Part shown: positions 3,881 through 3,957 of the stretch, in pieces
Layout of the letters: each line of letters begins with the position of its first letter
Position numbering within the stretch: position 1 is the stretch's first letter
Source of the DNA: an uncultured Clostridia bacterium
GTDB taxonomy: Bacteria > Bacillota > Clostridia > TANB77 > CAG-508
NCBI GenBank assembly: GCA_944393465.1
Contig: CALYAG010000009.1
Span: 1-64,000, forward strand
DNA: 64,000 nt
Reading direction: 5' to 3'
Program-made: the position numbers and the translations under genes
The notes under the pieces: generated by a model
Databases searched by the model: none
Told to the model about the DNA's origin: nothing
Seen by the model: only the letters and a program-made list of their open reading frames with translations

Positions 3881-3910
3881 ATTATATACTATTTTTATTA
3901 ATTATGTCAA
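3881..3910 (-). promoter_or_regulatory. Promoter of toxI
   Basis: Consensus boxes on the minus strand: TTGACA (3910-3905), an 18-bp spacer, TATAAT (3886-3881). Transcription would start near 3874, just before the repeat RNA. Confidence 0.75.
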
Positions 3911-3940
3911 TAGATTTGTAAAGTTTCGCCATAGTTTTTC

Positions 3941-3957
3941 GTCGACAAAATTCGACA
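3941..3957 (-). promoter_or_regulatory. Tandem TGTCGAA-type boxes upstream of toxI
   Basis: On the minus strand TGTCGAA and TGTCGAC follow each other with a 10-bp period, 30 bp upstream of the toxI -35 box. The heptamer equals the Spo0A box consensus. The same arrangement is seen at 42766 and 49666. Confidence 0.5.

What the first reader, a model, noticed from the sequence alone, without database searches (positions are those of the whole stretch)
3881..3957. Shared promoter design at three loci: tandem TGTCGAA boxes about 30 bp before TTGACA
At toxI (boxes 3957-3941, -35 at 3910), at the Rpn-type nuclease gene (42782-42766, -35 at 42737) and at 49.6 kb (49682-49666, -35 at 49636), two heptamers with a 10-bp period lie 30, 28 and 29 bp upstream of TTGACA on the same strand. 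The heptamer equals the Spo0A box. Two of the three control genes of defence or recombination type. This suggests one regulator, perhaps Spo0A, acting on toxin-antitoxin and nuclease genes.
Basis: partly seen in the sequence, partly recalled or inferred. Interest (0 to 1): 0.75.

Follow-up and report, generated by a model that had tools for sequence, protein, structure and literature searches.

The report
Helix-phased Spo0A promoters and new RNA
In small-genome Clostridia, paired copies of the Spo0A recognition sequence sit about one, two or three DNA turns before promoter sequences of nuclease, toxin-antitoxin, DNA-processing and surface-protein genes and of a predicted structured RNA, so the sporulation master regulator likely controls them directly.

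Summary
The own genome holds 18 tandem-box matches and none for the reversed pattern. The distance from the last box to TTGACA is not "about 30" but a ladder: 9, 19-20, 28-30, 39-41, 49 bp. Outside the own genus 46 of 50 matches are in phase, 41 at 9 bp. That is the mark of a regulator on the same DNA face as RNA polymerase. Spo0A is encoded in the window (34378-35196) and its DNA-binding region is well kept. Boxes occur in 34 of 219 phylum genomes with a Spo0A_C domain and 0 of 30 without. CtsR, the look-alike rival, has a different operator here. Predicted targets: five Rpn-family nucleases, ToxIN, DprA, a MucBP protein, a VirB4-like gene. The 49.6-kb site precedes a structured RNA with C-rich stretches and no Rfam match; searching with its covariance model, 31 of 36 examined non-seed copies have phased boxes upstream. 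In relatives a ~30-residue peptide ORF often lies between. The genome keeps spoIVA. Binding and activation are inferred, untested.

The parts
3941..3957 (-). tandem 0A-type box before toxI (TGTCGAATTTTGTCGAC, one mismatch)
3881..3910 (-). toxI promoter: TTGACA 3910-3905 (gap 30), TATAAT 3886-3881, spacer 18
   Evidence: positions counted by eye
3185..3721 (-). toxN, toxin of a type III toxin-antitoxin pair (start codon uncertain)
   Evidence: PF13958 E 1.4e-41; PADLOC AbiQ
42766..42782 (-). perfect tandem 0A box before the Rpn-family nuclease gene
42709..42737 (-). Rpn promoter: TTGACA 42737-42732 (gap 28), TAAAAT 42714-42709, spacer 17
   Evidence: positions counted by eye
41642..42496 (-). 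Rpn-family nuclease gene (PDDEXK_2)
   Evidence: TIGR01784 142 bits; PF12784
49666..49692 (-). overlapping tandem boxes at 49.6 kb (49692-49676 and 49682-49666; TGTCAAA and TGTCGAA heptamers)
49608..49636 (-). promoter of the predicted RNA: TTGACA 49636-49631 (gap 29), TAATAT 49613-49608, spacer 17
   Evidence: positions counted by eye
49241..49438 (-). predicted structured RNA: closing stem TTGTAGAGGAAA/TTTCCTCTACAA, C-rich stretches; no Rfam match
   Evidence: Rfam negative
34378..35196 (-). spo0A, the likely regulator
   Evidence: TIGR02875 E 1.9e-109; PF08769 E 4.6e-45

Best explanation
The tandem boxes are likely Spo0A operators placed on the same face of the DNA as RNA polymerase, and Spo0A~P bound there would activate ordinary sigma-A promoters whose -35 lies 9, 19 or 29 bp downstream. 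Shown: the box pairs, their phasing to TTGACA, the promoter sequences, a full-length Spo0A with a well-kept DNA-binding domain, and the genes downstream. Inferred: that Spo0A is the protein that binds, that it does so when phosphorylated, and that it activates rather than represses. The predicted targets here are Rpn-family nucleases, ToxIN, DprA, a MucBP surface protein, a VirB4-like gene and a C-rich structured RNA, which in relatives is often preceded by a ~30-residue membrane-peptide ORF on the same predicted transcript.
For: 18 matches against 0 reversed in the own genome; 70 matches in 27 of 56 relatives against 0 reversed. Gap ladder in 71 sites, 38 TTGACA within 101 bp downstream against 5, 8 and 5 in three control directions, period ~10.25 bp, p about 1e-4 on 54 dissimilar sites. 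Outside the genus 41 of 50 at 9 bp, 46 of 50 in phase. Spo0A in the window, DNA-binding domain E 6e-48 to PDB 1lq1 with SRVERAIRHAIEVAW identical. TGTCGAA is the published 0A core (PMC3485338, passages). Boxes in 34 of 219 genomes with Spo0A_C, 0 of 30 without, Fisher 0.009. The RNA, searched by covariance model, has phased boxes upstream in 31 of 36 non-seed loci.
Against: No binding or expression data. One relative, G048 (97% complete), has a perfect pair but no Spo0A_C match; that pair has no phased TTGACA. 35 of the 71 sites lack an exact TTGACA within 60 bp, and 5 of 16 own-genome sites lack a phased -35. Requiring TTGACA selects near-consensus promoters, which may need no activator. At B. 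subtilis spo0A, upstream 0A boxes were modelled as mainly repressive (PMC12090719, passages). Outside this clade the box excess is modest: 58 matches against 13 reversed. Five of 36 RNA loci lack a box. Orthologous sites are not independent.
Confidence: 0.7

Rival explanations
1. Spo0A binds the boxes but represses or merely tunes strong promoters, for example by trapping polymerase, rather than activating them.
For: The -35 sequences are at consensus by selection of the pattern; upstream 0A boxes at B. subtilis spo0A were modelled as mainly repressive (PMC12090719, passages).
Against: The boxes lie upstream and move by whole turns. In the same genome the repressor-type CtsR operator sits below the -10.
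Confidence: 0.15
2. A short Spo0A_C-only protein, present beside full-length Spo0A, reads the boxes.
For: A 120-residue Spo0A_C protein is encoded in the own genome, and short open frames with such a match occur in many relatives.
Against: It is divergent (44.5 bits against 152.3) and does not contain the stretch SRVERAIRHAIEVAW, which the full-length protein keeps.
Confidence: 0.08
3. The pairs are CtsR operators, which are also direct heptamers with a 3-bp spacer, so the genes are heat-shock genes under repression.
For: CtsR is present in the own genome and in 43 of 56 relatives; TGTCAAA in some pairs is close to GGTCAAA.
Against: The own ctsR promoter carries AGTCAAAGAAAGTCAAAGTCAAA below its -10, and the four other ctsR loci fetched carry the same 17-mer. 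Seven of the 13 relatives without a CtsR match have tandem TGTCGAA boxes. No clp gene was seen among the downstream genes tested.
Confidence: 0.02
4. The pairs spread as part of a repeated mobile sequence and have no regulatory role.
For: Several sites lie before Rpn paralogues with similar leaders, and three own sites share a terminator-like flank upstream.
Against: 54 mutually dissimilar sites keep the phasing; boxes precede unrelated genes, and the RNA keeps them across genera.
Confidence: 0.04

Closest known systems
Spo0A and the 0A box (B. subtilis, C. difficile)
   Same: TGTCGAA core; Spo0A with the same DNA-binding stretch; direct regulation beyond sporulation is known (PMC3485338, passages).
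   Different: Perfect tandem pairs at a 10-bp step, set 9/19/29 bp upstream of TTGACA; nuclease, ToxIN, DprA and RNA targets. In C. difficile the early sporulation promoters carry only near-consensus boxes (same paper). That 0A boxes of spoIIG-type promoters overlap the -35 is recalled, not read.
Class I activators of the CRP type
   Same: Whole-turn steps between site and promoter (the comparison is recalled).
   Different: A Spo0A-type box; contact with alpha-CTD not tested.
CtsR operator
   Same: Two direct heptamers with a 3-bp spacer.
   Different: AGTCAAA/GGTCAAA heptamers, below the -10 at ctsR of this genome.
C-rich-loop sRNAs of Firmicutes (RoxS, FsrA, CsfG; recalled) and the dual-function RNA SR1 (PMC8501984, abstract in search listing)
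   Same: C-rich stretches; small ORF plus structured RNA.
   Different: No Rfam match; long closing stem; upstream Spo0A-type boxes.

Membership tests
Spo0A operator (0A box) | TGTCGAA core | tested here: met
   core as published (PMC3485338)
Spo0A operator (0A box) | genome encodes Spo0A with kept DNA-binding domain | tested here: met
Spo0A operator (0A box) | boxes follow the presence of Spo0A across genomes | tested here: met
   34 of 219 against 0 of 30; one exception, G048, in the relatives sample
Spo0A operator (0A box) | Spo0A binds it | not testable with these tools
   needs gel shift or ChIP
Class I type activator promoter | site on the same helical face as RNA polymerase, moving by whole turns | tested here: met
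Class I type activator promoter | contact with alpha-CTD and activation | not testable with these tools
   inference only
CtsR operator | AGTCAAA/GGTCAAA heptamers overlapping the start region | tested here: not met
Type III toxin-antitoxin ToxIN | ToxN protein | tested here: met
   PF13958 142.8 bits
Type III toxin-antitoxin ToxIN | RNA repeats upstream of the toxin | tested here: inconclusive
   two similar ~40-nt units by eye; no Rfam match
Known Rfam RNA family (49.6-kb RNA) | match at or above the gathering score | tested here: not met

The most novel reading that the evidence does not exclude
In these Clostridia Spo0A~P reads a helix-phased promoter code that turns on a genome-defence and DNA-processing regulon (Rpn nucleases, ToxIN, DprA, a VirB4-like gene) together with an undescribed dual-function RNA: a structured, C-rich regulator that in many relatives also encodes a cationic membrane micropeptide, tying the sporulation decision to nucleases, toxin-antitoxin and RNA-level control.
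Probability: 0.42. Interest if true: 0.76.

Novelty: new variant of a known kind. Interest (0 to 1): 0.64.

Why it matters
It gives a sequence-only rule (box pair, whole helical turns, TTGACA) for finding Spo0A targets in uncultured gut Clostridia. It places nuclease, toxin-antitoxin and DNA-processing genes under the sporulation regulator and yields a candidate RNA family whose control can be tested at once. The 9/19/29 ladder makes an open point testable: how Spo0A bound upstream acts on polymerase, which PMC12090719 (passages) calls unidentified.

Tried and rejected
A non-sporulating lineage with a re-used Spo0A: rejected, since SpoIVA ATPase is found in 50 of 56 relatives (48 over the cut-off), own genome included. 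A repeated mobile sequence: not favoured. Pairing of the RNA's C runs with G runs in the toxI and two Rpn leaders: seen by eye, untested, left as a lead. Rfam gave nothing for the RNA. Among the titles and abstracts listed by the paper searches I saw none stating this promoter ladder, Spo0A control of ToxIN or Rpn genes, or this RNA; the library lacks most subscription journals, and one search was read by the tool as 'toxin' and so was unspecific.

Rows dropped: the C13 site (L026) was left out; it has TTGACA at 14, 49 and 67 bp, which I did not count as a promoter because they belong to repeated TTTGACA copies. In one search I left out 14 own-genus rows and one overlapping duplicate row of G094 from the 65 rows. 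The phase windows were taken from the own-genus ladder but written down after I had seen the outside rows. The sample overlaps the earlier genomes (some contigs have the lengths of G003's). Of the 50 RNA matches, 20 got no locus there, and 19 of them I did not examine. Seeds of the RNA model, chosen because boxes led to them, are 4 of the 23 loci and 6 of the 23. In one search I gave 30 loci; 28 were returned.

Full report
1. The observation. At up to 3 mismatches the window holds 9 matches against 2.45 expected, with 0 of 100 shuffles as high. The own genome (1.44 Mb, 29 contigs) has 18 matches to TGTCRAANNNTGTCRAM and none for the reversed pattern. In 56 relatives TGTCGAANNNTGTCGAA gives 70 matches in 27 genomes and no reversed match.

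2. The spacing is a ladder. I oriented 79 sites, 71 after keeping only the last of overlapping pairs (the C13 site L026 was left out). Exact TTGACA begins 9 (7), 19-20 (5), 28-30 (14), 39-41 (3) and 49 (1) bp after the last box, with 4 at 4-7 bp and 2 at 2 bp. Over 101 bp there are 38 TTGACA downstream against 5, 8 and 5 in the three other directions and strands. On 54 mutually dissimilar sites (21 TTGACA within 60 bp) the best period is about 10.25 bp, p about 1e-4.

3. Test outside the genus. Box pair + 3-33 bp + TTGACA in 385 genomes of the order gave 65 rows in 41 genomes against 1 reversed match. Of 50 rows outside the own genus (35 genomes), 41 have 9 bp, 3 have 18-19 and 2 have 29; 46 fall in windows taken from the own-genus ladder, though these were written down after I had seen the rows. 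This sample overlaps the former one. Most titles name Clostridia or their families, but a few name unrelated phyla, which may be chance.

4. The regulator. Spo0A is encoded in the window at 34378-35196. Its DNA-binding domain aligns to PDB 1fc3 and 1lq1 with E 7e-49 and 6e-48, and SRVERAIRHAIEVAW is identical (that this stretch holds the recognition helix and that 1lq1 is the DNA complex is recalled). [quoted passage not shown] difficile Spo0A (PMC3485338, passages). In 249 genomes of the phylum 34 have tandem boxes; all 34 are among the 219 with a Spo0A_C match and none among the 30 without (Fisher 0.009). Against this: G048, in the relatives sample, has a pair but no Spo0A_C match, and outside this clade the excess is modest (58 matches against 13 reversed). 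In G009 a perfect pair lies upstream of a spo0A gene; the own spo0A has no pair within 3 mismatches.

5. CtsR considered. Its operator has the same layout and CtsR is present in the own genome. But the own ctsR promoter shows TTGACA, TATACT and then AGTCAAAGAAAGTCAAAGTCAAA, a repressor position, and the four other ctsR loci fetched carry the same 17-mer. Seven of 13 relatives without a CtsR match have TGTCGAA pairs.

6. What lies downstream. Of 16 separate own-genome sites, 11 have a -35 (TTGACA in nine, TTTACA in two) at 19, 28-30 or 40 bp. Their next genes: PDDEXK_2 Rpn-type nuclease four times (C3, C5, C8, C9), Transposase_31/Rpn once, DprA, ToxN, a MucBP/fibro-slime protein, a gene with a weak VirB4 N-terminal match followed by a TraG P-loop gene, the 49.6-kb RNA, and a 67-codon ORF that resembles an Rpn tail by eye. 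The other five sites lack a phased -35: AAA-ATPase_like/PDDEXK_9, NUDIX, MnmE (by eye), one with only a convergent gene, and the C13 site. Of 7 PDDEXK_2 matches in the own genome, 4 have a pair with at most 1 mismatch, a fifth has one with 2, two have none. In relatives the same kinds recur by eye and by Pfam for those tested: PDDEXK_2, Transposase_31, MucBP, SocA_Panacea, ChlI.

7. The 49.6-kb site stands before a predicted RNA gene. DNA downstream of several box sites shares GTTTTTAA..TTGTAGAGGAAA ... C runs ... TTTCCTCTACAA. In 11 aligned sequences the 14-bp closing stem is 96.7% paired, and 0 of 500 shuffles reach the observed paired cells, double changes (14 cells) or covariation score; two other measures do not stand out (38 and 407 of 500). 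Slid versions pair 47-62%. Six of the 11 were folded singly, z -3.3 to -6.5. Rfam gives nothing. A covariance model found 23 matches in 22 of 56 relatives, all in the own genus, and matches in 49 of 287 genomes of the order.

8. The RNA and the boxes. In the 300 bp upstream, 21 of 23 own-genus loci have a tandem box (4 mismatches or fewer) with TTGAC at 9 (11), 19-20 (5) or 29-30 bp (5); 20 of 23 other-genus loci have it at 9 bp. Without seeds: 17 of 19 and 14 of 17, together 31 of 36. The antisense strand never falls to 3 mismatches (0 of 23 in each call). L156, L164, L302, L312 and L315 lack a box. In one search, 20 of 50 matches got no locus and 19 were not examined. At the TrmB-type loci trmB seems to have a promoter of its own (by eye).

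9. A micropeptide. In 15 of 28 loci returned an ORF of 29-39 codons with a ribosome-binding site lies between promoter and RNA, for example MIYFILFFSIFYLVKKIISKIIAKKIIKK. Over a 24-codon core in ten loci dN is below dS in 45 of 45 pairs, consistent with translation. The script found none in the window copy.

10. How it probably works. Spo0A~P on the box pair would sit on the polymerase's face of the DNA and touch it directly or through alpha-CTD. A T-rich tract follows the second box at many sites and could seat alpha-CTD. The genome has spoIVA, so this regulon would accompany sporulation rather than replace it. A plausible sense is protection or remodelling of the genome when cells commit. 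None of this has been measured.

11. Limits. This is sequence comparison, largely on draft and metagenome-assembled genomes; orthologous sites are not independent; demanding TTGACA favours strong promoters; activation is inferred from geometry. Papers: PMC3485338, PMC12090719, PMC7438776 and PMC8102284 were seen as passages; PMC10267692 was searched for five terms without a hit; the rest as search listings.

Noticed in passing
window 42653-42649 and 3739-3734; L023 leader: Runs of 4-6 G in the leaders of two Rpn genes and of toxI/toxN (AAATAGGGGG) could pair with C runs of the structured RNA; G runs are rare in this AT-rich DNA.
   Followed up: partly
L020 (own genome C6:57226-57513): A 120-residue protein made of little more than a divergent Spo0A_C domain; similar short open frames occur in many relatives.
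   Followed up: partly
L029, L068, L074, L077, L078, L105, L129, L130, L132, L134: A two-gene VirB4-like operon with an AAA-domain gene behind it recurs downstream of phased boxes; in L029 it lies beside a gyrB-like gene (by eye). It does not look like an ordinary conjugative element.
   Followed up: partly
L079, L082, L064 (- strand): Box pair with TTGACA at 6-7 bp and a shared downstream leader (GAAGGGTAGTTGCCCTTC hairpin); another possible RNA leader class.
   Followed up: no
L109 (G038): A perfect pair lies ~250 bp before a 1085-residue Cas9-like ORF (by eye), without a phased TTGACA.
   Followed up: no
L319 (own C14:41500-43220): Clear CtsR operator below the ctsR -10, the same 17-mer in five species of the genus.
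   Followed up: yes
window 42969-44456: Histidine kinase gene (HisKA, HATPase_c, HAMP) directly upstream of the boxed Rpn gene.
   Followed up: no
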